Shown here one piece after another: positions 9,574 through 34,437 of a stretch of DNA of 40,050 nt; the stretch's first letter is position 1, and each line of letters starts with the position of its first letter. The translations under genes and the position numbers were made by a program. Below the pieces are notes generated by a model. It had not been told where the DNA came from. It saw nothing but the letters and a program-made list of their open reading frames with translations, and made no database searches. Location: contig CAOKQK010000026.1 of the NCBI GenBank assembly GCA_948470905.1, positions 1 through 40,050 on the forward strand. The letters run 5' to 3'. The stretch comes from an uncultured Lachnospiraceae bacterium. Its GTDB lineage: Bacteria; Bacillota; Clostridia; Lachnospirales; Lachnospiraceae.

Positions 9574-9602
9574 TTTACAGAGTCCGTTTTGGGGGTGTGA
9601 GC

Positions 9603-11465: not shown

Positions 11466-11484
11466 ATAAGGGTACGGGAGTGAG

Positions 11485-12948: not shown

Positions 12949-12963
12949 CGCAGGAGGTTTTTT

Positions 12964-14433: not shown

Positions 14434-14461
14434 TGAGAAAGACCGGGGGGATATAAATGAT

Positions 14462-17051: not shown

Positions 17052-17056
17052 GGAAG

Positions 17057-18367
17057 ATGTTTTTTCAAAAAAAGGGTGTCGGTTTCCAGCCGGCACCTTT
17101 TGCGGAAACAAGGGAAAAAATAAAGAATCCGGGAAGGGGCTTTTACGAGATACACACCTTTGTCCTGGGCCAGGAGTGGGATCTGGAAAACTTAAGATGG
17201 TGCATCAGGCAGGAGCATACCCTTGCGCTTGTGATCCTGGATATCAGGGCAGCCAGGGAGCGGGAGCTGACGGCGGAGGAGCTGTCGGATATAGACGCCA
17301 TGCTGGGGGCTTTCGGCAGCCTGGGGACGGATGTGCTGTTTCGTCCCGTATATGACAGGGAGGGCAGGGGCATGCAGAATGAACCTGCGCTGCTTTCCCG
17401 GGTCCGGGAGCATATGCGGCAGCTGGCGCCGGTGATACAGGCGCATAGAGAGCACATTCTGCTGCTCCAGGGACTGCTCGTGGGAAGCTGGGGGGAGATG
17501 CATGCCTCCAAGTTCCTGCAGCCCGCATCCATAAGGCAGCTGGCGGAGGTGTGGCTGCAGGAGACAGACCAAAATATTGCCGTCCGAACCCCTGCCTTCC
17601 ACCGCATACTGAGCGGATACGGGGCGGAGGGGCGTGCCGCGGGACGATCTCCAGGGCAGTCTGCCGGACAAATTACAGGGCGGTTTGCCGGGCAAATTGC
17701 CGGGCAATCTGCCAGACAGATTGCCCTGTACAACGACGGGCTCTTTGGCTCGGAGACGGACCTGGGGACCTATGAGGACAGGGAAGGGGATCTGGCATAC
17801 CTGCAGGATAAGTGCAGGCACAGCATAAACGGGGGAGAGGCAGTGTGGGGAAAAGACCTTCCGGGGGCGGACGAGGTTGTGGACAGGATGAAGAGGCTGC
17901 ACATTGCCTATTTAAATCATGCCCATGATGTGAGGATGCTGGAGCATTTCAGGAAATTGACCTACAAAAAGCAGAATCTATATGATTACATAGAAGATCA
18001 CATGGGATATCGGTTTGTGATCAGGCGGGCGGCAAAGAGCCTGCGCCCGGGCGGGGGACTCCGTCTGGAGATACAGGTGGAAAATACAGGGTTTGGGAAC
18101 CTCTGTCAGGAAGCGGACATAAGCCTGATCCTGGAGGGGCAGGACGGGCAGCGGCGCGAGCTGCCTCTGACGGTGGATCCGCGCCGCTGGGAGGCTGGGG
18201 AAACGTCTGTTATCTCTGTGGATATAGACGATCCAGCCACTGCCACAGTTTATTTGTCCCTCCGCCGGAGGCTGGACGCAAGAGTTCTTCAATTCGCGAA
18301 TCAAGGTCAAAAGGAAGGTCTGGCAGTTCTGGGTACGCTGACGGTTCGTCAGGCTCCGCAATGGTAA
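17057..18367 (+). CDS. DUF4874/DUF4832 domain protein (cytoplasmic copy)
   Basis: A 436-residue protein with the family marker NPGRGFY (residues 24-30), LQGLLVGSWGEMHASKF and YNDGLFGSETDLGTY, and a C-terminal beta-sandwich ending with TVYLSLRRRLDARVLQFAN and AVLGTLTV. DUF4874/DUF4832 proteins are predicted glycosidase-like (TIM barrel plus beta domain) but uncharacterised. There is no signal peptide, unlike the paralogue on the opposite strand. Between the barrel strand and YNDG it carries a repeat insertion of about 25 residues (three 24-bp copies at 17654-17725) absent from the paralogue. Its last 158 bp overlap the 3' end of that convergent paralogue. It follows the GT2 gene by 5 bp, so it belongs to the Pel transcription unit; a role in trimming or binding the polymer is a guess. 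Confidence 0.8.
   Translation: MFFQKKGVGFQPAPFAETREKIKNPGRGFYEIHTFVLGQEWDLENLRWCIRQEHTLALVILDIRAARERELTAEELSDIDAMLGAFGSLGTDVLFRPVYDREGRGMQNEPALLSRVREHMRQLAPVIQAHREHILLLQGLLVGSWGEMHASKFLQPASIRQLAEVWLQETDQNIAVRTPAFHRILSGYGAEGRAAGRSPGQSAGQITGRFAGQIAGQSARQIALYNDGLFGSETDLGTYEDREGDLAYLQDKCRHSINGGEAVWGKDLPGADEVVDRMKRLHIAYLNHAHDVRMLEHFRKLTYKKQNLYDYIEDHMGYRFVIRRAAKSLRPGGGLRLEIQVENTGFGNLCQEADISLILEGQDGQRRELPLTVDPRRWEAGETSVISVDIDDPATATVYLSLRRRLDARVLQFANQGQKEGLAVLGTLTVRQAPQW
17654..17725 (+). repeat. 24-bp coding tandem repeat (3 copies)
   Basis: Units beginning GGGCAGTCTGCC, GGGCGGTTTGCC and GGGCAATCTGCC start at 17654, 17678 and 17702. They encode GQSAGQIT, GRFAGQIA and GQSARQIA inside the DUF4832 protein. 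Confidence 0.88.
18210..18367. other. 158-bp convergent antisense overlap of two coding regions
   Basis: The stop of the rightward DUF4832 gene is at 18365-18367 and the stop of the leftward one at 18210-18212, so both strands code between them. The rightward frame holds conserved family sequence here; the leftward frame holds its non-conserved tail. Confidence 0.85.
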
Positions 18368-19907
18368 AGGTGCCGAGCCCATAGCCCAGGGAGGTCTGAG
18401 GCGTCTCTATCGCCAGCTGCAGCTGACGCTCCGTGTCGTTGTCCCAGAGCTGGAAGCTTACGGTGTAAGCTCCGGCGGGCAGCTTCGTCAGCGGCAGTTT
18501 CAGCAGCAGGGTAAAACTGTCTGTTTCGTCAGCCGTTCGGGACAGCGAGGTGATATCTTCCTCAAAGGGATATACGTAATAGGCGCTGCTTTTGGCGTCA
18601 GGATGCGAAGCCTCGTGGGTACTGCCGGTATGCCCGTTATCTGTGTACTGCAGGATCAGCCTGCATTCCTTATCGCCGTAGAGGGGAGCAAAGCCTGCAT
18701 TGCGTATATTGACCCGGAAGGTCATGGAATCATCCTCCACCTGGTAAGCCATGTCTGCGGAGTCGATCAGGAGCCGGCTTCCCAGATGCCTTTTGATATA
18801 GGTATAGCCGTCCATGCCGTCATAGACGGAACCATCGTTTATGACGGTCTGTTCCCATTTCTGAAAGACATTTCTGTCGTAGTCCTCGTTGAAATAAGTA
18901 AGGTGCATCTGCCGCAGGGTGGGCAGGGCATTCTCAAAATCATTGAATACATTGTCTATGATCACTTCCCCGCCGTTGGGCACATAACAGCAGAGCTGAT
19001 TTTGAAACGCCAGTTCCTCGTCCCGGTTCCAGAGAGTGAAATCTCCTGCCTGGGCGCGGCTTCTGGTGCCGTAGGTTCCGTAATCCCCCTGGTTTCCCAT
19101 GATGCCGTCGTTATACAGGCTAAGCCTCTGTGCAAAGGGATGACCGGAGAGGGAGTCGGCGGTGATATCGGCAAGCCCTGTGACAGCGCGCCACTGCGCA
19201 GGCATGCGCACGGCGAGGAAGGTGCTGTCATCCGTGACAGCGCTCAGTGTACCTGCCAATAATTTAAAATTGTCATTGCTTAAGAATTTAGAGCCGTTCA
19301 TTTCGCCCCAGTTTCCGAGAAAAAGCCCCTGCAGGACGAAGATCTGGTCGCTGTTGTCCCGCAGGACAGGTTCCAGCTGCCTGATGTGGGCCAGGATAAT
19401 GTCAAGGCTCTCCGGCTCTGTTTCCAGGTTTTTGCCGTCCCAGTCGTAGAGGAAGCGGACCAGGAGGCGCTTGCCGGTGACAGAGCGCAGGGCGTCAAAA
19501 AGCTCGGCAATGTTCGCCAGGCCCGTCTCGGAAATCTCCCCATCCCTGTAATTGCGCAGATTGATCTGTATCATGGCAAGAGTGTTGGAGCGGTCGTTTT
19601 TGAATCTGTCTGCCACAAGAGAAGGATAATTCACCGTCTGGTCCGCAATGGTGAAGCCGTAGATGAGATAAGTCCCCCGGTCCGGGTTGGACAGGGGGGC
19701 GGCGGATTCCGTGAAGCTGTTCGCGGAGCCGACAGCTTCCCAATGCCTGCTGCTCTTGTAGAGGTTTTGATAGTATACATCCATAAATCTGCGCATATAG
19801 TCAACGCACAGCACTATGCCCGCCGCCAGGACAAAGCAGACAGTAAGGATAATGCATATTCTGATAAAGACGAAGATCCTGTGTAATGTTTTGTGTGTGG
19901 ATTTCAT
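18210..19907 (-). CDS. DUF4874/DUF4832 domain protein (membrane-anchored copy)
   Basis: A 565-residue protein with an N-terminal membrane anchor (about residues 11-35) and the same family markers as the convergent gene: NPDRGTY (74-80), LQGLFLGNWGEMNGSKF and YNDGIMGNQGDYGTY. The conserved fold ends with GYGLGTFTIAE near residue 518. The remaining 47 residues (from PDEPSAYPEL to the end) lie entirely opposite the conserved C-terminus of the 17057 gene and look like a tail gained by reading through it. Start: ATG 19907 has AAGGAG seven bases upstream, whereas an in-frame ATG at 19940 has no site. It is probably an extracytoplasmic, membrane-tethered glycan-active or glycan-binding protein (inference) and is the second gene of a leftward pair. 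Confidence 0.8.
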   Translation of the reverse strand: MKSTHKTLHRIFVFIRICIILTVCFVLAAGIVLCVDYMRRFMDVYYQNLYKSSRHWEAVGSANSFTESAAPLSNPDRGTYLIYGFTIADQTVNYPSLVADRFKNDRSNTLAMIQINLRNYRDGEISETGLANIAELFDALRSVTGKRLLVRFLYDWDGKNLETEPESLDIILAHIRQLEPVLRDNSDQIFVLQGLFLGNWGEMNGSKFLSNDNFKLLAGTLSAVTDDSTFLAVRMPAQWRAVTGLADITADSLSGHPFAQRLSLYNDGIMGNQGDYGTYGTRSRAQAGDFTLWNRDEELAFQNQLCCYVPNGGEVIIDNVFNDFENALPTLRQMHLTYFNEDYDRNVFQKWEQTVINDGSVYDGMDGYTYIKRHLGSRLLIDSADMAYQVEDDSMTFRVNIRNAGFAPLYGDKECRLILQYTDNGHTGSTHEASHPDAKSSAYYVYPFEEDITSLSRTADETDSFTLLLKLPLTKLPAGAYTVSFQLWDNDTERQLQLAIETPQTSLGYGLGTFTIAEPDEPSAYPELPDLPFDLDSRIEELLRPASGGGTNKLWQWLDRLYPQR

Positions 19908-19952
19908 TCTTACACTCCTTTTGTCCGCCCTGGCGGACATTGATCATAATAA

Positions 19953-22546: not shown

Positions 22547-24244
22547 TCATCCGCATCCTTTCCCAAACCGGACTTCACAGTCCTTCCGATAGAAAGCGAT
22601 TCCATAGCAGTCGATCTTCCGGTATCCTTCCCTGTGCAGCTCCTCCATATACTTTTTCCCATATATCTGCTGCAATGCTTTCTTTGCATCGGTTTCCAGA
22701 TCATCTATCTTTTCCGAGACTTTCAGTTCCAGGACGAACGACCTGCCGCGTAAAGACGGGCTCTTTATCATGATATCCGAGCGTCCCGCACCTGATTCCC
22801 GATTGGATTTCACCAGATAATCCTCACTCTGGCTCAGTATCCCTGTAAGGAAACCGTGATAAAAGTTTTCTGCGCTGTCATAAAAGCTGATGGTTGAAAA
22901 CAGCTGTTCATTCAGGATCTCCTTTATTTTCTCCGCGCTGCCATCCTCTATGGCACGGTACAGATCCCGGAAATCCTGCTTTTCTATCTTTGCCTTCATC
23001 CAGTCCATGATTGTATTTTCGTAAATCGTCATCACTTCCGTATCAGGGATGCGGACCTTCAGGAAAATATATTTTCCCTGGAAATATTCTTCCGCTTTCG
23101 TCAGATACCCGGTGAAATAAAGAAAATTCCACAGATTCTCGCCTTTGGAATGCACGTCCTCGTAAGTGACTTCCTCATGCACCTGTATATCCAGTGTTCC
23201 TCCGCTCAACAGCGTCTCAATCTGCCCCTTCGTCTCCCGGTCGGCCCGGGCTATCATATCCTTTATGATATCATTAGAGCTGGTGTTGATCCAGTAGGGA
23301 CGAGGGAAGGCATCCGCATCCGAATATAAATCATACAAAAATTTAACGACGCTCCAGGGATTGTAAACATCTATATTTCCAAACTTGTATCCGTCATACC
23401 ATTTTTTCATTGTCGGGAAACGGTTTTCAACACCATAATGCCGCATTGCCTCCAACACTTCCGATTCCGTGAAGCCAAAATGTTCACTGTACTTTTTGTC
23501 AAGGACGGAAATGATGTTCAAATGGTTCAGCCCTGTAAAAATACTCTCCTTTGAAATCCTCAGGCATCCTGTGATCACTGCAAAGTGCAGATTGTCATTG
23601 GTTTTCAGGGCAGATTCCAAAAGCGAACGTATAAAGTCCGCCATCTCCCCGTAAAAGCCCCTGAAATATGCATTTTCCAGCGGCACATCATATTCGTCAA
23701 TCAAAATGATCGTTTTTTTCCCCGTGGCCTGGCACAGGCATCTGCTCAAAAATTTAAGCGATCCGGAATAATCGTCATATCCCGCCTTCCCGCCTGCGAT
23801 TTCCCGAAATTTCTGCCTGTCATCCTCCGCTGTCCCCTCAAGCTCCAGCACATAACGGTGCCGCTTGAATTCCTCAGCGATCTCAATTTTTAATTTCTCA
23901 TACGCAGAAGCAAACGTTGGCTGCTTTGCTGATTTTAGTGTCAGGTTGATCACCGGGCAGCTTCCCATTTGATCCACATATCCTTCGCCGGCTTCCATTA
24001 TCTTCAAACCATGGAAAAGTTCTCTGTTCTGCGCATTCTTTTCATCGTCCCCGGTATCCTCGAAAAAGCAACGGAGCATGCTCAGGTTCAGCGTCTTACC
24101 AAAACGCCGGGGTCTGGTAAACAGATTCACTTTCCCCTTTAAATCCAACAATTCTTTTATAAGCATTGTTTTATCCACATAATAATATCCGCTTTCTATC
24201 ATATCTCTGAAATTTTCTACTCCGATCGGCAATGCCTTTTTCAT
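22547..24244 (-). CDS. AAA-ATPase-like protein with C-terminal PD-(D/E)XK nuclease domain
   Basis: A 565-residue complete member of the clostridial/Bacteroidetes AAA-ATPase-like family. The N-terminus has [12 protein letters not shown] and YYVDKTMLI, then a P-loop-like RPRRFGKT (residues 44-51). Walker B is [15 protein letters not shown]. The C-terminus is a PD-(D/E)XK module ([19 protein letters not shown] and ExK visible). Such genes are repeated many times in gut genomes and their job is unknown; suggested roles are defence or mobile-element biology. The start ATG 24244 has GGAGG (24256-24252, minus strand) seven bases upstream; a GTG at 24250 is too close to it. The gene stands alone between the Pel-side and accessory loci. 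A fragment of a paralogue lies at 1-195. Confidence 0.87.
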
Positions 24245-24289
24245 CCTCACGCCTCCGTTTTACCTGTCCGCCCGTTCACTTTTTATATT

Positions 24290-24366: not shown

Positions 24367-24395
24367 TTGAACATTTTATAACAGGATGCTATAAT
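24367..24395 (+). promoter_or_regulatory. Strong sigma-A promoter of the nucleotidyltransferase-peptidase operon
   Basis: TTGAAC (24367-24372), a 17-bp spacer and a perfect TATAAT (24390-24395). Transcription would start near 24402 and run into the 24546-30327 operon. Confidence 0.75.
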
Positions 24396-24545
24396 ACACT
24401 CGAAGCATATTTCCTTTTGTATCAGTTGTCGGCGGATATGGGACTCTGAAAGGCAGGTTTTTACGGACTTTGGCTCATTGTCCGCAGGAATCATAAAGAA
24501 AGGGGCTGACGAAAAAACTCTTGGAGCGAGCATGGGGGTGTGGGA

Positions 24546-26273
24546 ATGGCAGAGAGAAAAGGCGGACGTGCCGGAACGGAAATGAAGATGAAAAACCGTA
24601 TCCTGACGGAGATGTTAGCCGCTGCCCTGCAGGGGCAGCCCTGGAACGGAGAGGGTGTTTCCCAGGCAGCTGCGGAGCAGGTATATCAGCTGGCGGACAG
24701 CCATGCCGTGCTCTCCATGGTGGCGGAGAGATTTTTCGCCTGTCCGGTCCTGGAGCAGAGGGCCAGAGAGGTCTGCAGGCGGACCGTGTTGAGGAGCTAT
24801 CATCTGCTCTTTTTGACAAAGTATGTGGTGGGTGTCCTGGGGGAGCGGGGCATTGAGACGGTTGTCTTAAAAGGCGTGAGCGCTGCCTTTTATTACAGGG
24901 AGCCGGAGCTTCGCAAGTCCGGGGATGTGGATCTGCAGCTGCTGGATCCCTCCCGGATAGATGAGGCTGTGGAGGCGCTGCAGCAGAGGGGCTTCCGGAC
25001 AAATCCGGTTCAGGATGCCAACCATCATTTCGCCATGTTCAGCCCGGAGGGCATTGAAATAGAGCTTCATACCATGCTGGTCGAGCCCTTTGACAGCGCG
25101 GAGGTCAACCGCTATCTTGCGGGGCTGGTACGGGAGCTTGGGCAGCATGTGCAGGAGAGGGAGATCATGGGCGTCTGCCTGCCGGTCCTCTCTGAAGGGG
25201 TGCAGGCGTACCAGCTTCTGCTGCATATGTTGCAGCATTTCCTGCGCGCAGGCTTTGGCATAAAGCTTCTCTGTGACTGGGTGGTGTTCTGGAACAGGGA
25301 AGTGGACGAGGAAGAGTGTGCCCTGTACAGGAGGCTGATAGCGGACACGGGGCTGGAGAATTTCTCCCGGATGGTGACATCTGTCTGTGTGTATCATTTA
25401 GGGCTGCAGAGAGAGGTGAACGGCTGGCTTTGTCAGAGGCTCTTTTCGGAGGCGGATGAGGAAGGCTTCTGGAAGGGTATCCTGGAGGCTGGTGAGTTTG
25501 GCAGGGGAGAAGCGGAGCGCATGGTGGTTCTCAGGGAGAGGGGACTGAAGGGGTATCTTCGGGAGTTCCATCACCAGATGCACCTGAACTTTCCCAGGGC
25601 CGGCAGGTGTTATCTGCTGTTTCCGGGGCTGTGGCTGGTAACGCTGGTGCGTTTCCTGCGGAACAATCGGAAAGTGAGGGGGGTGTCGATCAGGCAGGTG
25701 CTGCGGACGGCGGACAGGCGAAGCAGGCGGATGGAGCTTTTGGGGCTGTTTCGGACAGGGGCAGACAAAGCTAAGGCGGACACAGACAGAACAGGCGCAG
25801 GCAAAGATAAGACAGACATAGGTGCGGCAGGTAAAGGGAAGATTGATATAGAAGCCCTGTTAAAACAGGGAAAGACCATACAGCTCCATCCCCGGGGGTG
25901 GAGCATGTATCCCATGTTCATCCCGGGAAGGGATGAGGCGGTTATCGGAAGGGCGGATGCGGACAGACTGCGTCGGGGGGATGTGGTATTGTACCGCCGG
26001 GAGGGGAGCATCCTGGTACTGCACCGGATCCTGGCGAAGAAGCCGGAGGGATTTTACATGATAGGAGACAACCAGATGGAGGCGGAGGGCCCCCTGAAGC
26101 CGGAACAGATCAGGGGAGTGCTGGTTTCCTTTGTCAGGAAGGGCAAAAAAATATCTGTGAAAAATCCCTGTTATATAGCAGGAAGCAGGCTGTGGATGCT
26201 GGCAAGACCCCTGAGGGGGATTGTGAGGAAGATACGGCAGAAATGCCGCAGTACAGGGAGGAGCGGGTTATGA
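24546..26273 (+). CDS. Nucleotidyltransferase (PF14907-type) fused to an S26 signal-peptidase-like domain
   Basis: A 575-residue fusion. The N-terminal half looks like the NTP_transf_5 family: VVLKGVSAAFYY, then the metal-binding DxD in SGDVDLQLL (D127, D129) and IEIELHTML. A basic linker with Lys/Asp/Thr/Gly-rich repeats (about 410-435) leads to a C-terminal domain with the ER/SipW-type signal-peptidase signature: GWSMYPMF (S453), RGDVVLYRR, VLHRI (H493) and GDN (D508). That is a Ser-His-Asp arrangement rather than the Ser-Lys pair of ordinary bacterial enzymes. No membrane helix is evident, so it may act inside the cell. Related nucleotidyltransferases occur beside PqqD and HPr-kinase-like genes in some lasso-peptide loci. 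It leads the operon; its stop overlaps the next start by 4 bp. ATG 24546 is preferred over GTG 24540. Confidence 0.78.
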   Translation: MAERKGGRAGTEMKMKNRILTEMLAAALQGQPWNGEGVSQAAAEQVYQLADSHAVLSMVAERFFACPVLEQRAREVCRRTVLRSYHLLFLTKYVVGVLGERGIETVVLKGVSAAFYYREPELRKSGDVDLQLLDPSRIDEAVEALQQRGFRTNPVQDANHHFAMFSPEGIEIELHTMLVEPFDSAEVNRYLAGLVRELGQHVQEREIMGVCLPVLSEGVQAYQLLLHMLQHFLRAGFGIKLLCDWVVFWNREVDEEECALYRRLIADTGLENFSRMVTSVCVYHLGLQREVNGWLCQRLFSEADEEGFWKGILEAGEFGRGEAERMVVLRERGLKGYLREFHHQMHLNFPRAGRCYLLFPGLWLVTLVRFLRNNRKVRGVSIRQVLRTADRRSRRMELLGLFRTGADKAKADTDRTGAGKDKTDIGAAGKGKIDIEALLKQGKTIQLHPRGWSMYPMFIPGRDEAVIGRADADRLRRGDVVLYRREGSILVLHRILAKKPEGFYMIGDNQMEAEGPLKPEQIRGVLVSFVRKGKKISVKNPCYIAGSRLWMLARPLRGIVRKIRQKCRSTGRSGL

Positions 26274-27673
26274 GATGGCGTGCCGCAGGGGAATATGTGC
26301 ATGTGAGGCTGGGGGGACAGAGCTATCTGCTGCCCTGGGGGCAGAAGATAGTGGATTTCCATGTGGGTTTGCAGATCAATGAATCCGGGGTGCTGCTCTG
26401 GAATGCCCTTGGTGAAGGCGCAGATGAGGAAGAACTTCTCATGCTGCTGTGCAGGCGCTTTCAGGCACAGGGGGAGGAGATCCTGCTGCTGAGGCGAGAT
26501 CTGGAAGAATTTCTGCTGCGGCTGGAGGCAAAAGGCGCCGTGACCAGGGAGGCGGACCAGGACTGTGCAGAGGGGCATTCCGGGGAGGCATTCTTTTTCC
26601 GGGCAGGCTCTTTAAAAATCGCTTACAGGGGACCGGAGGCAGTCTGGCAGAAATTCTTAAAAGGTTTTGGCTGCGAGGCGGGGAAGGCGGATCAGAGAGT
26701 GGAGGTCCTGGCCAGCCGTCCCCTGGACACTGTAAACGGCAGGGTTCTGGTGCGCAGCAGCGAATTCCTGCTGATGGAGGGAGAGGCGTGGTATGTGATG
26801 CTGCTGCCTGTTTTCCCGGAAATTTATGAGCTGCATGTGAGCAGGGACGGAAGTCTGTGCCGTATCTACTGCCGTCCGGAAATGTCGGAAGAAGAACAGG
26901 AACATATTTTTCATGCCATGCGTTTCGGGTTCCTGGTCCTGGCGCAGGAGAGGGGGCTGGCAGTGGTCCATTCCGCCTCCCTGCTGTACAGGGAGAGGGC
27001 ATGGCTTTTTGCGGGGAAATCAGGCACGGGCAAATCCACCCACACGAGCCTGTGGAGAGATGCATGGGGGGTAACGTTGTTAAACGGGGACTTAAACTGC
27101 CTGGGCGAGGCGAAAGGCAGGGTGTGGGTCTACGGGCTGCCCTGGTGCGGCACGTCGGGGATTTCGACGCCGGAGACATATCCCCTGGGAGGCGTGGTCT
27201 TCCTGAAACAGTGGAGGGAAAATCAGGTGCAGGAGCTGGCAGAGGCGGAGAAGGTCTGTCTGCTTGCAATGCGTATGATCACGCCTGCCTGGACTGGGGT
27301 ACGGCTGAAGAAGAATCTTGAGATGTCAGAGCAGATCCTCCGACATTGCATGGCTGCAAGGCTCTGCTGCACCAGGGAGCCGGAGGCGGCGGAGGTAATG
27401 CGGGGGTATATTGACGAGCGTTGTGATGCCGGGCGGGGAAGCGCCGACGTGGGAAGGCATGGAGAAGCCGGGTGGGAAAGCGCCGACGTAGGAGGGGATG
27501 GAGAAGCCGGGCGGGGAAGCGCTGACGTGGGAGGAGATAAAGAAGCCGGGCAAGAAAGCGCTGACGTGGGAGGAGATAGAGAAGCCGGGCAAGAAAGCGC
27601 TGACGTGGGAGGAAATGGAGAAGCCGGGCGGGAAAGAGCCGACGGGAGAGGGGATCAAGAAGATGGAAGCTGA
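26270..27673 (+). CDS. PqqD-like domain fused to an HPr-kinase-like P-loop kinase
   Basis: A 467-residue protein. Residues 1-90 resemble PqqD / leader-binding domains (INESGVLLWNALGEG, then a winged-helix-like LLCRRFQAQGEEILLLRRDLEEFLLRL). About residues 105-390 form an HprK-like kinase: VVHSASLLY, Walker A GKSGTGKST (249-257), LLNGDLNCL in the position of the second acidic motif, and GLPWCGTSG. HprK-like kinases next to PqqD occur in some peptide natural-product clusters, where they phosphorylate the precursor. Here both are one chain, which would bring the kinase to a leader-bearing substrate (inference). The last 75 residues are six 13-residue repeats of the ADVGGDxEAGxxS type, coded by 39-bp units. 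ATG 26270 overlaps the upstream stop, and GGAGG precedes it. Confidence 0.78.
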   Translation: MRWRAAGEYVHVRLGGQSYLLPWGQKIVDFHVGLQINESGVLLWNALGEGADEEELLMLLCRRFQAQGEEILLLRRDLEEFLLRLEAKGAVTREADQDCAEGHSGEAFFFRAGSLKIAYRGPEAVWQKFLKGFGCEAGKADQRVEVLASRPLDTVNGRVLVRSSEFLLMEGEAWYVMLLPVFPEIYELHVSRDGSLCRIYCRPEMSEEEQEHIFHAMRFGFLVLAQERGLAVVHSASLLYRERAWLFAGKSGTGKSTHTSLWRDAWGVTLLNGDLNCLGEAKGRVWVYGLPWCGTSGISTPETYPLGGVVFLKQWRENQVQELAEAEKVCLLAMRMITPAWTGVRLKKNLEMSEQILRHCMAARLCCTREPEAAEVMRGYIDERCDAGRGSADVGRHGEAGWESADVGGDGEAGRGSADVGGDKEAGQESADVGGDREAGQESADVGGNGEAGRERADGRGDQEDGS

Positions 27674-27676
27674 CAG
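27443..27676 (+). repeat. 39-bp tandem repeat (6 copies), open in two frames
   Basis: Copies start at 27443, 27482, 27521, 27560, 27599 and 27638. In the frame of the PqqD-kinase gene they read ADVGGDxEAGxxS. In the next frame, which leads into the Stealth gene, they read EKPGKKALTWEEI-type repeats without a stop. Copies are close to identical, so they are recent. Confidence 0.9.
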
Positions 27677-28667
27677 GATTGATTTTGTACTGCCGTGGGT
27701 TGACGGCGCAGATCCGGCATGGCTGGAACAGAAAAGACAGTATGAGACGGGCTGCGGGGAGGATGCCAAGGAGGAGCGCTTCCGGGATTGGGACAACTTA
27801 AGGTACTGGTTCCGGGGAGTGGAGAAATTTGCGCCCTGGGTGGGAAGGATCCACTTTGTCACATGGGGGCATGTGCCTGCGTGGCTTAACACTGCCAACT
27901 CCAGGATTCATATCGTAAGGCATGAGGATTATATGCCGGAGGAGATCTTGCCTGTCTTCAGCAGCCATCCCATAGAGCTGCTCATGCACAGGATAGAAGG
28001 GCTTTCAGAGAGGTTTGTCTATTTTAACGACGATTTCTTTTTGATAGATAAGGTGCCGGAGAGCTTTTTTTTTCAGGACGGGCTGCCCTGCGACATGCTT
28101 GCCTTCCAGCCGGTGGTCGCCAATCCAGCCAATCCGGTAATGTCCCATATTTATCTGAATAATTCCCTGGCGCTGTCCAGGCATTTTGACAAAAGGGCAA
28201 ATGTGAAGGCACAGCCCGGAAAGTATTTTAAGGCGGGCTATCCGCCGCTGTATTTTTTTTATAACCTGCTGGAGCTTGCCTTTCCGCTTTTTACGGGCTT
28301 TTATACTGTGCATGGTCCCTCCCCTTTTTTAAAAAGCACCTTTGAGGAGGTCTGGGAGCGGGAGGGGGAGCTGTTAATGCGGACCTGCAGCCACCGTTTC
28401 CGCAGCGAGGAGGATGTAAGCCAGTATCTCATCCGGGAATGGCAGAAGCTCTCGGGGAAGTTCCGGCCCAGGAATATAACGGGGAGATTCCGCTATTTCA
28501 ATGTGGAGGACCACAATCCGGCGCTGCTTAAAACGATCAGGAGGCAGAAGGCGGATATGATCTGTATCAACGATGCCAACAGGAAGATAGATTTTGAAGG
28601 AGCGAAGGCGGAGATCAACGACGCCTTGAAAGCCATCCTTCCGGAAATGAGTTCCTATGAAATATGA
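27663..28667 (+). CDS. Stealth-family sugar-phosphate transferase
   Basis: A 334-residue protein with the four conserved Stealth regions: CR1 IDFVLPWVDGADPAW; CR2 RDWDNLRYWFRGVEKFAPWV and IHFVTWGHVPAWL; CR3 HPIELLMHRIEGLSERFVYFNDDFF; and a C-terminal block with FNVEDHNPALL. Stealth enzymes transfer a sugar-1-phosphate (for example GlcNAc-1-P) from a nucleotide sugar, building phosphodiester-linked capsular polymers; GNPTAB in animals does the same on glycoproteins. The start overlaps the upstream stop by 11 bp, and a purine-rich site (27645-27654) fits ATG 27663. An in-frame upstream ATG at 27498 would add 55 repeat-coded residues and has no properly spaced site. The acceptor may be a glycan or the leader-bearing proteins of this locus. 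Confidence 0.9.
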   Translation: MEADRIDFVLPWVDGADPAWLEQKRQYETGCGEDAKEERFRDWDNLRYWFRGVEKFAPWVGRIHFVTWGHVPAWLNTANSRIHIVRHEDYMPEEILPVFSSHPIELLMHRIEGLSERFVYFNDDFFLIDKVPESFFFQDGLPCDMLAFQPVVANPANPVMSHIYLNNSLALSRHFDKRANVKAQPGKYFKAGYPPLYFFYNLLELAFPLFTGFYTVHGPSPFLKSTFEEVWEREGELLMRTCSHRFRSEEDVSQYLIREWQKLSGKFRPRNITGRFRYFNVEDHNPALLKTIRRQKADMICINDANRKIDFEGAKAEINDALKAILPEMSSYEI

Positions 28668-30327
28668 AAAAGGCGAAAAAAAGATGGCGCATAAAGGGCA
28701 GATGCCAGAGCCGGGGAAGGTGTCAAAGCCGGAACAGGCGCCGGGCAGAAAAGGGAAAGAGGACAAAGCAGGATCAGAGAAGATCACCAGAACGGAATAT
28801 TCCATGCGCAACACTTCTGTGGCGCTGGTATCGAGGGTCACGGCGATCATCATGGGGTATCTGCTGAGGGTGGTCTTTACGCGTACCTTAAGCGAGAGCT
28901 ATGTGGGTCTGAACGGCCTGTTTATTGACATTATCAATGTGCTGTCTCTCTCGGAGATGGGGATTGGGACTGCTGTCACATTTGCGCTGTACCGTCCCAT
29001 CGCGGAGGGAGATATTGAGAAACAGAAATCCCTGATGATGCTGTACCGCAGGTTTTACAGGATCGTGGTGGCGGTGGTGGCAGTGCTGGGCTGTGTACTG
29101 ATTCCTTTTATGAGGATACTGATCAGGGACTATAAGGATGTGGACAACCTGATCCTGATCTATCTTCTGTATCTTGCCAATACCATATGTTCGTACCTTC
29201 TGATCTACAAAAAAACCCTGCTGGACGCCCAGCAGAAAATGTACATAGGAGTTTTTTATCAGACTTTTTTCTGGGTGGTACAGGATGTGCTGAAAATTGC
29301 CGTGCTGCTGGTATGGCAGGATTTTATCCTGTTTTTGGTCATTGGGATTGTGACTACGCTGCTCTGCAACCTCTGTATTTCCAGGGCGGCCGACAGGAGA
29401 AATCCCTATCTGCGGGACAGGGATGCAGTACCTTTGCCTGCGGAGGAAAAAAAGGAAATTTTTGCAAATATCCGCGCCATGATGATGCACAAGGTGGGGG
29501 CAGTGATCGTAAATAATACGGATAACCTGGTGCTGTCTGCCTGTGTGGGGCTCCTGAGCGTGGGCAGCTATTCCAACTATTATCTGCTGCTGGGGTCTGT
29601 GCGCCAGATCCTGAACCAGGTGTATCAGGGGATCACGGCAAGCGTGGGAAACCTTGGGGTGATGGAGGACGAGAGCCGTGTGAAGCGGGTTTTTAAGGCA
29701 GCTGTCTTTATCGGACAGTGGCTGTACGGCGTGGCGTTCATCTGTCTGTACGAGCTGCTGAATCCCTTTGTGGAGCTCAGCTTTGGGGAAAAATTCCTCT
29801 TTTCAAAAGAGATTGTGTTTGTCCTCTGTCTGAATTTCTATCTGAACGGATTGCGGAATGCGGCATTGACCTTCCGGGATTCCATGGGACTGTTCTGGCA
29901 TGACCGCTATAAGTCGGTCCTGGAGGCGGGGCTTAACATTGTGTTTTCCCTGATCCTGGTATATTATATGGGAGTTATCGGCGTGTTCCTGGGGACGCTT
30001 TTCAGCATGCTTCTGACCTCCTGCTGGATAGAGCCCTATATCCTTTACAAGCATGGATTTAAATGCTCCAGTAAGGGCTTCTTTTTGCGCCAGGGGCTTT
30101 ACATCGCCCTGATGACGGCGGTGTGGCTGGTGACAGACGCTGCCTGTAATGCCGCGGCGTCATGGGCAGGCAGCCTTTTTGCAGAGCTACTGATCCGGCT
30201 GGCCCTGTGCGTTGTGGTGCCAAACGTGCTGTTTTTGCTCCTCTATGGCGGTACGGCGGACTTTAAGTATACGGTAAATAAGGCATTAGGCTTTATAAAG
30301 GCTCGGATGAAAAGAGAGGAGAGATGA
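28657..30327 (+). CDS. MOP-superfamily flippase / polysaccharide transporter (Wzx-like)
   Basis: A 556-residue polytopic protein with about 12-14 hydrophobic helices. The first begins after a roughly 45-residue basic, hydrophilic N-terminus, at MRNTSVALVSRVTAIIMGYL, followed by RTLSESYVGLNGLFIDIINVLSLSEMGIG, a pattern of Lachnospiraceae oligosaccharide flippases. It would move a lipid-linked glycan across the membrane. It is distinct from the PelG-like transporter. It overlaps the Stealth gene by 11 bp. No good ribosome-binding site precedes ATG 28657, and ATG 28684 is an alternative. Coupling with the Stealth enzyme suggests a phosphate-containing glycan is made and exported here, although no polymerase or initiating transferase is in the window. 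Confidence 0.85.
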   Translation: MKYEKGEKKMAHKGQMPEPGKVSKPEQAPGRKGKEDKAGSEKITRTEYSMRNTSVALVSRVTAIIMGYLLRVVFTRTLSESYVGLNGLFIDIINVLSLSEMGIGTAVTFALYRPIAEGDIEKQKSLMMLYRRFYRIVVAVVAVLGCVLIPFMRILIRDYKDVDNLILIYLLYLANTICSYLLIYKKTLLDAQQKMYIGVFYQTFFWVVQDVLKIAVLLVWQDFILFLVIGIVTTLLCNLCISRAADRRNPYLRDRDAVPLPAEEKKEIFANIRAMMMHKVGAVIVNNTDNLVLSACVGLLSVGSYSNYYLLLGSVRQILNQVYQGITASVGNLGVMEDESRVKRVFKAAVFIGQWLYGVAFICLYELLNPFVELSFGEKFLFSKEIVFVLCLNFYLNGLRNAALTFRDSMGLFWHDRYKSVLEAGLNIVFSLILVYYMGVIGVFLGTLFSMLLTSCWIEPYILYKHGFKCSSKGFFLRQGLYIALMTAVWLVTDAACNAAASWAGSLFAELLIRLALCVVVPNVLFLLLYGGTADFKYTVNKALGFIKARMKREER

Positions 30328-30334
30328 GCTTTAT

Positions 30335-32104
30335 CTAAAAGTCTTCGATCAAGCGGCTGATCTCTGCTTCCTCCAGGCTGGTGCATTGCCTGTCCCGGAT
30401 GGCGTAGACCCGGGTGCATAGGTTCAGGACAGTGGGGCGGTGGGTGGTGACAATACAGGTGCGCGGGTAGGTGTCCTGCATGATGTTGTGCAGGAGCCGG
30501 CGTTCCGTGGCTACATCCAGGGCGGAGGTAGCCTCATCCATCAGCAGGATGGGGGACCTGCGCAGCAGGGAGCGGGCGATGGAGAGGCGCTGGGCCTGCC
30601 CTTCGGAAAAGCCTGTCCCCCGTTCGCCTACCCTGCTGTCTATGCCGTCGGGAAGCCTGCTCACAAAGTCCCAGGCGCAGGCGGTTTTCAGGGCTTCCAT
30701 GATCTCATCGTCGGTGGCGTCCGGTTTGACATTTCTCATATTTTCGGCGATCGTCCCGGAGAACATGGTGTTGCCCTGAGGCACATAGGAGAAAAGCCTT
30801 CTGGTGGAGGGGGACATCCTCAGCCGATCGCCTTTGCTTGCCACGAAGCTCTCGCCTCCGCAGGGGGAAATCAGGGACAGAAGCAGCCGCAGCATGGTAG
30901 TCTTGCCCTCGCCGGAGGGCCCTACCAGCGCTACGATCTCATGGGGGTGCGCCTCCAGGGAAGCGCCTGCAAACACGTTATTTCCGTCCTGGTAGGAGTA
31001 TGTGATATCCTGCAGCAGGATGGAAATGCCGTCGTTTTTGTGCTGATTTAAGAAAGCTGCCGCCGCAATGTCGCCGCTGTGATCCTCCTGAGGCATTTCC
31101 ACGATATCCATCAGCCGTCCCGCCGAGGTGGTCAGGCTGATGACGGAGGGGACCAGGGAGGTCAGGTTGTGCAGCGCGCCGGTCAATGTGCCGGAGAGTC
31201 CCAGGAACATGGTCATGGTGCCGTAGTCGATGGCGCCGCTCCAGACCCGGTAGATGCCCCAGCCGTAGGCGGCATAGGAAACCAGGATGGACACAGTGGA
31301 CAGAAGCAGCGAGGTACCCATGGATATTTTCTGGAAATCCAGCTTCATGGCGATGTAATCCTTCTGCAGGCGCTTTAGCCTGCCTGTATAAAAGGGCACC
31401 AGGTCAAAGGCTTTGATGGTCTGGATATTGGAGAAAGCCTCCTGATTGAAGCCGGACATGGCGGCGGACATGGCGGCACTGCGCTTGTTGTTGTTCACCA
31501 TGCGCCTCATCAGGGTTCTGGACAGCAGCAGGCTGACCGGCATGCCCAGAAAGGCAAAGACGGCAAAGGAGATATCATTGCTGGCAACCACCGCGAAGGC
31601 GCTGACAAAGCGGAAGATATAGACCACCATGTTGGGGATGAAGTTCAGCACGCCGTTTGAGATATTGGAGGTGTCGGAGCCCCAGCGGGTCAGCAGATCT
31701 CCCGTGTGATATTTGGTCAGGGATTCCCAGTCCGTCACCAGGATCTTGGAGAAAATGTCGGACTTGATCTCCGCGTCCACGTTCATGCTGATCCGGCTGG
31801 AGGCGTAATTGGCGAGCTGGTTCACCAATGTGGAGCCTACCCCCAGCCCGATCATGGCGGCAAAGGTCCTGACCACCTCTCCCGCCTGGTATCCGGTGAT
31901 GATATTTACCAGATCCCTGGAGACGAAGCCGGAGAGCAGAGAGACGAGGGTCCCGATAAGCCCCAGCAGGGTATAAAATATCATTGGCATCCAATAGTGG
32001 CGGGCATATTGGTAGATCCACCTGGTCTGCCGCAGCATTTCCTGGATGCGGCCTGCTTTGATGCGTTCTATGTAAAATTGCAGTCTCTCCCTGAGATAGT
32101 TCAT
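30335..32104 (-). CDS. ABC exporter (fused permease and ATPase), no peptidase domain
   Basis: A 589-residue half-transporter of the type I exporter fold. About residues 30-325 are the six-helix membrane domain; residues 360-589 are the ATPase: Walker A GPSGEGKTT (K401), signature FSEGQ (499-503; Glu replaces the first Gly of SGGQ), Walker B ILLMDEATSALD and switch His in IVTTHRPT. The N-terminus has no C39 bacteriocin-peptidase domain, so it does not cleave leaders itself. It is the last gene of the leftward unit with the two leader-bearing proteins, and I infer that it exports them. It converges with the flippase gene, 7 bp apart. GAGGGAGA precedes ATG 32104. Confidence 0.9.
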   Translation of the reverse strand: MNYLRERLQFYIERIKAGRIQEMLRQTRWIYQYARHYWMPMIFYTLLGLIGTLVSLLSGFVSRDLVNIITGYQAGEVVRTFAAMIGLGVGSTLVNQLANYASSRISMNVDAEIKSDIFSKILVTDWESLTKYHTGDLLTRWGSDTSNISNGVLNFIPNMVVYIFRFVSAFAVVASNDISFAVFAFLGMPVSLLLSRTLMRRMVNNNKRSAAMSAAMSGFNQEAFSNIQTIKAFDLVPFYTGRLKRLQKDYIAMKLDFQKISMGTSLLLSTVSILVSYAAYGWGIYRVWSGAIDYGTMTMFLGLSGTLTGALHNLTSLVPSVISLTTSAGRLMDIVEMPQEDHSGDIAAAAFLNQHKNDGISILLQDITYSYQDGNNVFAGASLEAHPHEIVALVGPSGEGKTTMLRLLLSLISPCGGESFVASKGDRLRMSPSTRRLFSYVPQGNTMFSGTIAENMRNVKPDATDDEIMEALKTACAWDFVSRLPDGIDSRVGERGTGFSEGQAQRLSIARSLLRRSPILLMDEATSALDVATERRLLHNIMQDTYPRTCIVTTHRPTVLNLCTRVYAIRDRQCTSLEEAEISRLIEDF

Positions 32105-32124
32105 GTCGGTTCTCCCTCACTGCC

Positions 32125-32161
32125 AAAAACAGCATTACCCCGTTTCAGGGGGCAATGCTGT
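32125..32161 (-). terminator. Intrinsic terminator between the small proteins and the exporter
   Basis: On the minus strand a 13-bp stem (32161-32149 with 32141-32129, one A-C mismatch) is followed by five T (32129-32125). It lies 40 nt after the stop of the 32201 gene and just before the ABC exporter start, so it probably reduces exporter expression relative to the small proteins. Confidence 0.82.
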
Positions 32162-32200
32162 CTTAAGGTTCTTAATTCTTTTGATGTCTGCTTCTGCTCA

Positions 32201-32647
32201 TCAGTTACCGTCGCCGCCTTTGCCCTGGACATTCACTGTCTTGGTGCAGGATATTGTTGCGCCTGTGCAGGAGAGAGCTTTAGTGGTCGCTTCGTCTGCA
32301 GCTTTAACCCATACCTTGTAGGTGGCATGATCGCCGGACTGATAAGCGTTTGCGTGTGATTCACGGGTAACGGTCACTGTGTTGCCGCTATAGCTGCAAT
32401 CCCAGTTATTTTCGGTATAAGCATCCGTAAGTGCATTGTTAAATGCAAGCGTGACTGTGGAAGCAGTGGATATGTGCTCTACACTATCAGAATGCGTTAT
32501 ATCTACTTCAAAAACGTTATGTGAACCGTTCCAGTCTTGCACAGAATAAGCTGCCACAGACCAGCAATCTGCCGACCCGCTGGCGGCGTATACGCCTTCC
32601 GCAATATCTTCGTTTGCCAATACTATAGGTTTTTCGTAATGATTCAT
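32201..32647 (-). CDS. Leader-bearing small protein 1 (candidate exported, CBM2-like)
   Basis: A 148-residue protein of unknown family. Residues 1-24 align without gaps with the neighbouring small protein: MN-x-YE-x-P-x-VL, D14, EGVY (17-20) and ASG (22-24), 15 of 24 identical. The remainder is unrelated to that neighbour. It contains four Cys (the first at 28; others in WDCSYSG, ALSCTG and ISCTK) and looks beta-rich; the spacing TLAFNN, NNWDCSYSGNTVTV, QSGDHATYKVWV recalls carbohydrate-binding module family 2, which is only a resemblance. There is no hydrophobic signal peptide, so export would need the conserved leader and the ABC exporter downstream. ATG 32647 has GTGGGGA seven bases upstream; an in-frame extension toward 32824 lacks any conservation. 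Confidence 0.72.
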   Translation of the reverse strand: MNHYEKPIVLANEDIAEGVYAASGSADCWSVAAYSVQDWNGSHNVFEVDITHSDSVEHISTASTVTLAFNNALTDAYTENNWDCSYSGNTVTVTRESHANAYQSGDHATYKVWVKAADEATTKALSCTGATISCTKTVNVQGKGGDGN

Positions 32648-32827
32648 TTTTTTTCCCCACTTTCCTGTATCATTTTTCCTTTTAAATGCTTTTGTTATTC
32701 GCTGCCGGATATGATCTGTTGCCGTGAGGACCGCAATATCCATGCGGTGGAGCGGATCACATTCTGTCCCGCAGCGTGACAGGCTTAATCCCCATTGCCT
32801 GCCGAGGAAGTCTTGATCATTCAAATA
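32648..32827 (-). other. Spacer between the two small proteins
   Basis: A gap of 180 bp. On the minus strand a small hairpin (CCGCA...TGCGG) lies about midway and the rest is unstructured. An open frame across it starts with TTG and has no ribosome-binding site, so I do not call a gene. No promoter is convincing, so the two genes are probably co-transcribed. Confidence 0.45.
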
Positions 32828-33202
32828 TTACATCGCCCAGTCTGTTACCGGATCGTCGGGACCATAGCCTTTCTTTTCCCAGGAAGGCTTGCGGTTGCCA
32901 TTGTCCGTATCATAACTCGCGGCGTAATCGGAATCCACATAGTGTGTCTGCAGTCCGCACCCATTGTGTGTATTCGCCGGACAGCCGAGGCATGCGAACT
33001 GCTGCTTGTAGCCTCTGGTCCCGCCTGCCCAATCCGAATAATCGGGAGCCTGCCATACGCCTTGCATGTATATACTGTCGCATTTTGGACCGTTTCCGGA
33101 ACCATCCGCCGTTCCGCCGTCACTGGCGGCGCCGCTCGCCATATAAACGCCCTCTGACGCGTCAAGGTCTTTGAGCACCTTTGGTGTTTCGTAAGAATTC
33201 AA
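32828..33202 (-). CDS. Leader-bearing small protein 2 (candidate exported or modified precursor)
   Basis: A 124-residue protein of unknown family, first gene of the leftward unit. Residues 1-24 are the shared leader (YE at 4-5, P7, VL 9-10, EGVY 17-20, ASG 22-24). After a Gly/Ser/Ala-rich stretch (25-38) come four Cys at 41, 71, 74 and 82 (CLGC in the middle) and many Tyr, Asp and Gly residues; there is no hydrophobic signal and no secondary-structure-rich core. A conserved leader before a variable, Cys-containing, Gly-rich part is how ribosomally made modified peptides are built, though 124 residues is long for one. The start codon is TTG at 33202, supported by a strong GGGGGG-type site seven bases upstream. 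Confidence 0.7.
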   Translation of the reverse strand: MNSYETPKVLKDLDASEGVYMASGAASDGGTADGSGNGPKCDSIYMQGVWQAPDYSDWAGGTRGYKQQFACLGCPANTHNGCGLQTHYVDSDYAASYDTDNGNRKPSWEKKGYGPDDPVTDWAM

Positions 33203-33298
33203 TTTTATTCCCCCCTTTCCTGATTGCAGGGATACCCCTGTTTATAACATTTTTCACCCCAGGGCTGCTAGAGCTGCCCTGTTAATATAGTTATGATT

Positions 33299-33328
33299 AT
33301 TGTAATCCATTGGAAAGCGGACTGTCAA
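33299..33328 (-). promoter_or_regulatory. Promoter of the small-protein / exporter operon
   Basis: Minus strand: consensus TTGACA (33328-33323), an 18-bp spacer and TACAAT (33304-33299). The leader to the TTG start at 33202 is about 90 nt. Confidence 0.68.
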
Positions 33329-33531: not shown

Positions 33532-34437
33532 ATGTTTCCATATCTTTTAATGCGTTTATTGCTTTTTGCTGCTTTCATTGTTTTTATTGCTGCCAATCTC
33601 AGCTCCGCCTCCGGTCCCGTAACAATCCGAATGAACAATGACTACTTGTTCAGAGCGCTGCTCCAGCAGAACAATAATGCCCTGAAGGGGCTTATCTGCT
33701 CGCTCCTCCATATGTCTCCCCAAGAGGTCCGCTCCGTGAGCGTCACTAACCCGATCCTGCTGGGGACCTCTATCGATGACAAGACCTTTTTCCTGGATGT
33801 GCATACGCTCCTCAACAACAGCAGCATTATCAACCTGGAACTGCAGGTCATCAATGAACACAACTGGACGGAACGCTCCCTGGTTTACCTCTGCCGTGCC
33901 TTTGACAACCTGGCTCGGGGCAGGGACTACCACCAGGTACTGTCCGCTGTCCAGATCGGTCTGTTGGATTTCACACTGTTTCCGGAGCATCCCGAATTCT
34001 ATGCAACCTATCGGATGCTGAATGAGAAAAACCACATGTTATATAGTGACAAACTGCGCCTTTCTGTGGTAGACTTAAACCATATAGAAATGGCGACCGA
34101 TGAGGACAGGCGATACCATACAGACAGCTGGGCGTCATTCTTCAAGGCCACCACATGGGAGGAGATCAAAATGCTCGCGCAGAAGGACGAATATATCCAC
34201 GATGCTGCCAACACCATCTACCAGCTCAGCCAGGATGAAATGATACGCCTGCAGTGCGAAGCCCGGGAGGACTACTACCTCAGGCAGCGTTCGGTTGAGC
34301 ACTATATGCAGGAGCAGAACGCTACAATTCAGGCGCTGCAGGATACTAATAAGGCACAGAGCGCCATGATCCAGGAGCTGCGTGATATGGTTGCAGTGCT
34401 TCAGGCGCAGGCTGGGCAGCAGAGGAGCGGTTCCTAA
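33532..34437 (+). CDS. Rpn-family PD-(D/E)XK nuclease-like (transposase-like) protein
   Basis: A 301-residue open frame. From MNNDYLFRALL (residue 34) it follows the Rpn/PDDEXK_2 pattern: FLDVHTLLNNSSIINLELQV contains the D and E-x-Q of the nuclease core, followed by the basic, aromatic WTERSLVYLCRAF helix and PEFYATYRMLNEK. The C-terminus is a long coiled coil (MQEQNATIQALQDTNKAQSA). Rpn proteins have been linked to recombination and phage defence. The first 28 residues are strongly hydrophobic (LLMRLLLFAAFIVFIAANL), which is foreign to the family, and no ribosome-binding site precedes ATG 33532 or ATG 33631; the true start is unclear and a decayed 5' end is possible. Confidence 0.7.
   Translation: MFPYLLMRLLLFAAFIVFIAANLSSASGPVTIRMNNDYLFRALLQQNNNALKGLICSLLHMSPQEVRSVSVTNPILLGTSIDDKTFFLDVHTLLNNSSIINLELQVINEHNWTERSLVYLCRAFDNLARGRDYHQVLSAVQIGLLDFTLFPEHPEFYATYRMLNEKNHMLYSDKLRLSVVDLNHIEMATDEDRRYHTDSWASFFKATTWEEIKMLAQKDEYIHDAANTIYQLSQDEMIRLQCEAREDYYLRQRSVEHYMQEQNATIQALQDTNKAQSAMIQELRDMVAVLQAQAGQQRSGS

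What the first reader, a model, noticed from the sequence alone, without database searches (positions are those of the whole stretch)
24367..33328. Candidate undescribed leader-peptide-directed modification/export system, possibly coupled to a surface glycan
Seen: two facing operons. Rightward: nucleotidyltransferase fused to an ER/SipW-type signal-peptidase domain, PqqD fused to an HprK-like kinase, Stealth transferase, flippase. Leftward: two small Cys-containing proteins with one shared 24-residue N-terminus, then an ABC exporter without C39 peptidase. Known: PqqD binds leader peptides; HprK-like kinases and PF14907 nucleotidyltransferases accompany some lasso-peptide loci; Stealth enzymes transfer sugar-phosphates. 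Inferred: PqqD recruits the leader, the kinase/nucleotidyltransferase/Stealth enzymes modify the cargo, the S26-like domain or another protease removes the leader, and the exporter secretes it. No lasso cyclase, radical SAM or lanthionine enzyme is present, so it fits no class I know.
Basis: partly seen in the sequence, partly recalled or inferred. Interest (0 to 1): 0.88.

Follow-up and report, generated by a model that had tools for sequence, protein, structure and literature searches.

The report
Leader-guided tagging system for secreted proteins
A gut bacterium carries a gene set that appears to recognise a shared 20-residue address at the start of small proteins, phosphorylate them next to it, cut the address off and export them; the machinery resembles a recently described peptide-modification family, but here it seems to act on protein-sized cargos, a few of which resemble carbohydrate-binding domains.

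Summary
The window holds a nucleotidyltransferase–S26 peptidase fusion, a PqqD(RRE)–HprK-like kinase fusion, a Stealth enzyme and a flippase, facing two cargo genes with one shared leader and a C39-less ABC exporter. Leader and RRE-kinase travel together: of 396 family genomes, 22 have the leader, 24 the fused RRE-kinase and 21 both, 19 of those within 5.2 kb.

The parts list matches the core of the "linear polyphosphorylated peptide" (LPP) RiPPs published in May 2026 (PMC13381572). LppB's YxxP-binding residues and the peptidase's Ser/His/Asp are kept.

It is a new variant: RRE fused to kinase, peptidase fused to nucleotidyltransferase, EGVYxxS instead of FETxxS, and one leader on eight cargo sequence clusters with cores of 57-151 residues, one member with a CBM_2 domain above cut-off. 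Flippase and Stealth are tied in by gene fusions; glycan coupling remains inference. No experiment supports any step in this organism, and the cargo folds are unknown.

The parts
24367..24395 (+). promoter-like site (TTGAAC-17-TATAAT) before the rightward operon
   Evidence: consensus match only
24540..26273 (+). NTP transferase (PF14907) domain (about 24681-25706) fused to a SipW/S26-like leader peptidase domain (about 25845-26231)
   Evidence: presumed catalytic S/H/D kept; no second NTP-S26 fusion among the loci typed
26270..27673 (+). RRE (PqqD) domain (about 26309-26539) fused to HprK-like kinase (about 26606-27415); ORF also open from GTG 26192
27428..27662 (+). 39-bp x 6 tandem repeat coding the C-terminal tail of the RRE-kinase
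27663..28667 (+). Stealth-family (hexose-1-phosphate transferase-like) protein; ORF open from 27498
28657..30327 (+). Wzx-like flippase (Polysacc_synt)
30335..32104 (-). ABC exporter, MsbA-like, no C39 peptidase domain
32588..32647 (-). cargo 1 leader, 20 residues up to the inferred cut after Tyr20
   Evidence: cut site inferred from the LppA register
32201..32647 (-). cargo 1 precursor (148 aa); predicted phospho-acceptor Ser23; conserved Cys28, His52, His58
33143..33202 (-). cargo 2 leader, 20 residues up to the inferred cut after Tyr20
32828..33202 (-). cargo 2 precursor (124 aa, TTG start), four-Cys core; predicted phospho-acceptor Ser23
33299..33328 (-). promoter-like site (TTGACA-18-TACAAT) before the leftward operon
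   Evidence: consensus match only

Best explanation
This is an LPP-type RiPP pathway that works on protein-sized cargos. The RRE half of the RRE-kinase binds the Y-x-x-P-x-V part of the leader. The kinase half adds one or more phosphates to the invariant Ser of [VI][YF]-x-x-S (Ser23 in both window cargos). The nucleotidyltransferase, and perhaps Stealth, decorate that phosphate. The S26 domain, a probably cytoplasmic Ser-His-Asp peptidase to which the RRE presents the substrate, cuts after the Tyr/Phe, so the Ser becomes residue 3 of the mature protein, as in LppA. The ABC exporter then secretes the N-terminally tagged protein. Shown here: the genes, the shared leader, their co-occurrence, conservation of binding and catalytic residues. 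Inferred from LPP: phosphorylation, cleavage, RRE dependence. Inferred only: decoration by nucleotidyltransferase/Stealth, the role of the flippase, export, the exact cut site.
For: Co-occurrence: 21 of 22 leader-positive genomes have the fused RRE-kinase among 396 (recounted); in an earlier set of 52 same-genus genomes, 24 of the 25 with the RRE-kinase had the leader against 1 of 27 others. The RRE-kinase profile matches LppB (PDB 9X8Z, E 0.0063) and TbiB1 (E 1.8e-5), with LppB's YxxP-binding N33, D70 and F74 kept in 59, 56 and 54 of 62. S26 Ser/His/Asp kept. In LPP the kinase phosphorylates S3 and the SipW-like peptidase cleaves after residue -1 with RRE help. Tyr-to-Ser distance is 19 in 69 of 71 distinct cargos, 20 in 2. 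One leader, eight core clusters at BLASTP E<1e-3. Fusions among distinct proteins join RRE to kinase (62), flippase to NTP (9), Stealth to NTP (1), NTP to S26 (1, the window) and kinase to S26 (1), with two more kinase-S26 proteins.
Against: The cleavage-side motif differs (EGVYxxS, not HQxIxFETxxS) and Tyr to Ser is one residue longer than in the LPP consensus. An Asp pair seen in Prevotella relatives (NDDN) is N-G-D here in 64 of 64 (equivalence by eye), so kinase activity is not assured although His, Lys and one Asp are invariant. Three of 24 RRE-kinase genomes lack a detected leader and one of 22 leader genomes lacks the fused RRE-kinase; 6 of 23 full-flank loci lack a recognised leader and 5 of 23 an S26 hit. 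One of the 24 (G275) was counted on kinase pieces in a 412-residue frame, its PqqD piece not being listed. Leader conservation counts are biased because members were found with a pattern or profile containing these residues. No biochemistry; no cargo structure.
Confidence: 0.75

Rival explanations
1. The leader is only an export signal for the ABC transporter; kinase, nucleotidyltransferase, Stealth and flippase build a phosphate-bearing surface glycan and do not touch the cargo.
For: A Pel-like exopolysaccharide gene set lies to the left; Stealth and flippase are glycan enzymes; cargo and glycan genes sit in two facing operons. In 6 of 23 full-flank loci the RRE-kinase has no recognised leader nearby.
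Against: The leader carries the RRE-binding YxxPxV and the RRE keeps the YxxP-binding residues; the RRE is covalently part of the kinase in 62 distinct proteins; leader and RRE-kinase co-occur.
Confidence: 0.13
2. A degenerate or lasso-like peptide locus in which the cyclase and B2 peptidase were lost.
For: Same leader motif type, kinase and nucleotidyltransferase as paeninodin- and pseudomycoidin-type lasso loci (passages of PMC9266682; leader motif from PMC13381572); TbiB1, a lasso RRE, is the best PDB match.
Against: No B2 peptidase (PF13471) above cut-off in the genome as held (89.9% complete), best 17.9 against 26 bits; cores are 57-151 residues, longer than the rumen lasso cores of 22-39 residues in the table passage seen; an S26 peptidase stands in its place. 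The cyclase family itself was not searched genome-wide.
Confidence: 0.05
3. The cargos are secreted antibacterial proteins and the modification is for self-protection or maturation.
For: Variable cores behind a constant leader and mostly Cys-bearing small proteins; patchy distribution (22 of 396 genomes).
Against: No gene was recognised as immunity among the window proteins scanned, though no dedicated search was made; three cores are CBM_2-like (one above, two below cut-off); no family match for either window cargo.
Confidence: 0.1

Closest known systems
Linear polyphosphorylated peptides (LPP RiPPs; lppA/K/B/S/D/N, Paenibacillus alginolyticus; PMC13381572: abstract, introduction and sections 6, 7, 8, 11, 12, 16, 35 read, passages elsewhere)
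   Same: RRE + HprK-like kinase + SipW-like leader peptidase + NTP transferase + MsbA-like exporter; YxxPxV leader; Ser at or near core position 3; polysaccharide-locus context; 35-200 aa precursors with variable C termini
   Different: RRE fused to kinase (discrete in LPP); S26 fused to NTP in the window; EGVYxxS instead of HQxIxFETxxS; some cargos with a recognisable domain; flippase and Stealth joined to NTP by gene fusion; found here in Lachnospiraceae and relatives (words beginning 'lachnospir' and 'clostridia' do not occur in the paper's main text; its supplements could not be read here)
Paeninodin/pseudomycoidin-type lasso peptides (passages of PMC9266682)
   Same: HprK-like kinase, NTP transferase that is linked to hexose addition after phosphorylation, RRE and related leader motif
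   Different: no B2 above cut-off in the genome as held, S26 peptidase instead, no short core; phosphorylation there is on a C-terminal Ser
Stealth phosphotransferases (passages of PMC5974469)
   Same: Stealth CR1-CR3 present in 27663-28667
   Different: joined to the nucleotidyltransferase by fusion in L074/L111 and placed beside an RRE-kinase; substrate unknown

Membership tests
LPP RiPP family | SipW-like leader peptidase with Ser/His/Asp | tested here: met
   Ser 47 of 47, His 48 of 48, Asp 48 of 48 aligned domains; window has all three
LPP RiPP family | RRE with YxxP-binding residues (LppB N33, D70, F74) | tested here: met
   59, 56 and 54 of 62; window N, D, F
LPP RiPP family | discrete (stand-alone) RRE | tested here: not met
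   RRE fused to kinase in 62 distinct proteins; extra stand-alone RREs occur in some loci (9 proteins in the 44 loci)
LPP RiPP family | HprK-like kinase, NTP transferase, MsbA-like exporter in the cluster | tested here: met
   window; relatives:
LPP RiPP family | precursor leader YxxPxVLxHQxIxFETxxS | tested here: not met
   YxxPx[VI] and a Ser kept, HQ and FET absent, Tyr-to-Ser one residue longer
LPP RiPP family | polyphosphorylated Ser near the new N terminus | not testable with these tools
   needs mass spectrometry; invariant Ser found
LPP RiPP family | RRE falls in the LPP clade of the RRE tree | not tested
   the paper's sequence set (supplement) could not be read; Paenibacillus LPP loci were not obtained
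Lasso peptides | B2 leader peptidase | tested here: not met
   best 17.9 bits, cut-off 26, own genome (89.9% complete)
Lasso peptides | macrolactam cyclase | not tested
   the cyclase family was not searched genome-wide; none seen among the 18 window proteins scanned

The most novel reading that the evidence does not exclude
An RRE-guided kinase, nucleotidyltransferase, Stealth enzyme and flippase together put a phosphoglycan on Ser3 of secreted, in part carbohydrate-binding-like, domains and so tie a lectin-like protein covalently to the cell's own exopolysaccharide: a RiPP pathway turned into a general tagging route for folded surface proteins.
Probability: 0.2. Interest if true: 0.88.

Novelty: new variant of a known kind. 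Interest (0 to 1): 0.63.

Why it matters
If the cargos are modified as predicted, a RiPP-type pathway acts on protein-sized cargos with interchangeable cores, which blurs the line between peptide natural products and targeted protein modification. It gives a directly testable substrate (Ser23 of two cargos) for the PF14907 transferase, which showed no activity in the reported LPP expression system, and suggests through gene fusions which partner enzymes (flippase, Stealth, a family-2 glycosyltransferase) it may need. Named strains in the genome contigs set carry leader-bearing relatives: Anaerobutyricum hallii DSM 3353, Coprococcus catus VPIC661 and Eubacterium plexicaudatum ASF492.

Tried and rejected
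Homology of cargo 1 to the CBM_2-like cargos: profile comparison gave about 1% probability, so cargo 1 is not called a CBM; by eye it had looked CBM2-like. PDB sequence searches with both cargo profiles gave nothing below E 0.1. A Pfam scan of 27 cargo-1-type proteins gave only scattered weak hits, at most 2 members each. The lasso hypothesis was disfavoured. A search for Paenibacillus LPP loci to build a tree did not succeed: the class searched was that of an Erysipelotrichaceae genome (L117), and its 59 matching genomes of 394 are 1.2-3.0 Mb; of the 30 loci it returned, 28 also had the kinase and 25 the RRE in the same short stretch. A pattern search for precursors in 30 loci, many of them from Bacteroidota, found convincing ones in two Prevotella loci, L151 and L161. 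Paper searches for this variant brought up LPP; none of the titles and abstract openings listed describes an RRE-HprK kinase fusion, and the literal strings EGVYAASG, AEGVYAASG and EGVYMASG occur in no held paper. RRE-Finder's main text has no word beginning 'HPr' or 'kinase' (passages only). This covers the open library only, not supplements or subscription papers. In the first numbering of LppB residues the register was off by three; it was redone and one search's residue lines are discarded.

Full report
What is there. The window (contig C26 of a 3.7-Mb, 157-contig genome) holds two facing operons between 24.4 and 33.3 kb. Rightward: PF14907 nucleotidyltransferase fused to an S26/SipW-like domain, PqqD fused to an HprK-like kinase, a Stealth protein and a Wzx-like flippase; the genes overlap, with the RRE-kinase starting at ATGA over the previous stop. 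Leftward: two small proteins with a common N-terminus and an ABC exporter without C39. The genus is probably Acetatifactor-like Lachnospiraceae: a named Candidatus Acetatifactor contig has the same length (220071) and the same cargo as a contig of the same-genus genome G016. This is an inference; the window's own record is not named.

The set is a recurring cassette. In 99 genomes (own included), 28 had a match to the RRE-kinase at E<=1e-5, 26 of them in the window's genus. Of the 61 genus members I gave 52 to a leader search; the 9 left out had no RRE-kinase match. Leader-bearing ORFs were found in 24 of the 25 genomes with the RRE-kinase (E<=0.0012; the miss, G012, has a locus cut by the contig end), and at E<=0.01 in 1 of the other 27 (G001, whose contig ends soon after the exporter). 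A wider survey of 396 genomes of the family gave 22 with the leader, 24 with a fused RRE-kinase and 21 with both; 19 of the 21 have them within 5.2 kb on one contig. I counted the 24 from the match list: 21 as one long match, 2 as two pieces in one open frame (G478, G396), and 1 (G275) on kinase pieces in a 412-residue frame, its PqqD piece not listed. The hypergeometric P is about 1e-30, or 1.8e-28 without G275. Misses: G489 has the leader but only a kinase-domain hit; G176, G482 and G136 have the RRE-kinase without a detected leader. The profiles were built from members of this kind, some of them in the survey itself, so detection, not independence, is what is tested.

Gene content. The genome-contig scan kept the best 80 of at least 576 loci. 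Among 23 loci with the fused RRE-kinase and at least 9 kb on both sides, 21 have a hit of the ABC-exporter profile, 18 the S26 protein, 17 a leader cargo, 13 the NTP transferase, 12 the flippase and 7 Stealth. The S26 protein is usually separate, mostly 140-180 aa. Fusions among distinct proteins: RRE-kinase 62, flippase-NTP 9 (one of them, L068, with the NTP part split over two frames), Stealth-NTP 1, NTP-S26 1 (the window), kinase-S26 1, plus two kinase-S26 proteins and a GT2-NTP protein in L080. These fusions are the best reason to count flippase and Stealth as part of the pathway.

The leader. Of 76 leader-bearing proteins collected, 71 are distinct. From the Tyr of YxxP (Leu in one) to the Ser is 19 residues in 69 and 20 in 2, and all 71 fit [VI][YF]-x-x(x)-S. 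In the 69, Pro at position 4 and Glu at 14 are invariant and position 15 is Gly (65) or Ser (4). The members were found by a pattern or a profile built on these residues, so the counts overstate constancy. The cores fall into 8 clusters by BLASTP at E<1e-3 (47, 11, 4, 3, 2, 2, 1, 1), with lengths 57-151; deeper relations between clusters are possible. One CBM_2-like core passes Pfam's cut-off (L104, 26.4 against 24 bits) and two fall short (22.6 and 19.9); the profile of these cores finds CBM2 structures of the PDB only weakly (E 0.015-0.05). The window's cargo 1 belongs to the largest cluster (conserved Cys28, His52, His58); its fold is unknown, and profile comparison does not link it to the CBM_2-like cores. 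Cargo 2 belongs to the four-Cys cluster.

What it is. Popov et al. (PMC13381572; abstract and introduction, sections 6, 7, 11, 12, sections 35, 8, 16, passages) describe LPP RiPPs with the core genes A, K, B, S, D, N. They show that the RRE LppB binds YxxP, the kinase LppK puts several phosphates on Ser3 of the core, and the SipW-like LppS removes the leader with RRE help. Deleting lppN did not change the products detected in their system. The window-type RRE-kinase profile matches their LppB structure 9X8Z (E 0.0063) and TbiB1 (E 1.8e-5); the window's RRE alone has TbiB1 as its best PDB hit, but not significantly (E 0.18), and does not list LppB. Their YxxP-contacting N33, D70 and F74 are N, D and F in the window and in 59, 56 and 54 of 62 RRE-kinases; other pocket positions vary (V35 is mostly Thr, V63 is variable). 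D70 is the residue reported to hydrogen-bond the leader Tyr, and 68 of 69 leaders have Tyr there. S26 Ser/His/Asp are invariant; my reading of the sequence finds no membrane-spanning stretch, and fusion to a nucleotidyltransferase argues for a cytoplasmic place. With a cut after Tyr20, Ser23 becomes core residue 3, as in LppA; the cut site is inferred.

What differs from LPP. The RRE is not discrete, the HQ and FET parts of the leader are absent, the Tyr-to-Ser spacing is longer by one, and some cargos carry a recognisable domain. Two features given for LPP are therefore not met. I call it a system that works like LPP and is a variant of that kind, and leave formal membership to a tree with the LPP sequences.

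Distribution beyond the window's type. Relatives with separate kinase, S26, RRE and often NTP and ABC genes appear in Ruminiclostridium, Ruminococcus, Prevotella and other Bacteroidales. In a Bacteroidota family sample the kinase profile hits 126 of 151 genomes at E<=1e-15. I fetched 20 of these loci, chosen down to about 156 bits: the RRE is present in 20 of 20 stretches and the S26 gene in 19 of 20, mostly side by side, while the exporter and NTP genes were seen in only a minority. A YxKPxM...LL[AV]GS leader profile hits 37 of 151, some only in part, and all 37 are kinase-positive (P 4e-4). It also hits 10 of 10 genomes that I chose for having the kinase gene, two of which supplied the profile's rows and two of which match only at E 0.003-0.004. 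This is modest evidence. The paper says LPPs are restricted to the Bacillota; these loci suggest a wider spread of an LPP-like core.

Limits. No structure prediction was possible, I know of no experiment on this variant, and the flippase and Stealth roles are inferred from fusions and context.

Noticed in passing
L178-L197 (Bacteroidota genomes); also L137-L169: A kinase-S26-RRE gene triad like LppK-LppS-LppB is common in a Bacteroidota family (kinase profile in 126 of 151 genomes; RRE in 20 of 20 and S26 in 19 of 20 loci that I picked), with scattered small ORFs bearing YxKPxM...LL[AV]GS leaders.
   Followed up: partly
window 27428-27662: A 39-bp tandem repeat of six copies encodes the tail of the RRE-kinase and is also open in the frame ahead of the Stealth start.
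   Followed up: no
window 33532-34437 and 22547-24250: The cassette is flanked by an Rpn/PDDEXK_2 recombination-promoting nuclease gene and by a large ORF that looks like an AAA/PD-(D/E)XK protein (by eye only, not scanned).
   Followed up: no
window 9597-19940: Pel-like exopolysaccharide genes: DUF2194, DUF3492 glycosyltransferase, PelG exporter, another GT1 and two DUF4832/DUF4874 proteins.
   Followed up: partly
L087-L091: Leader-bearing cargos also sit on contig stretches without a detected RRE-kinase, as if the machinery served several loci.
   Followed up: no
L152 and L155, 7500-9700: Ruminiclostridium cellobioparum loci encode three short YxKP precursors beside separate RRE, kinase, S26, ABC, NTP and flippase genes.
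   Followed up: no
L070, L078, L080, L101: A second, stand-alone RRE lies beside the NTP transferase in these loci, hinting that this enzyme too acts while the leader is attached.
   Followed up: no
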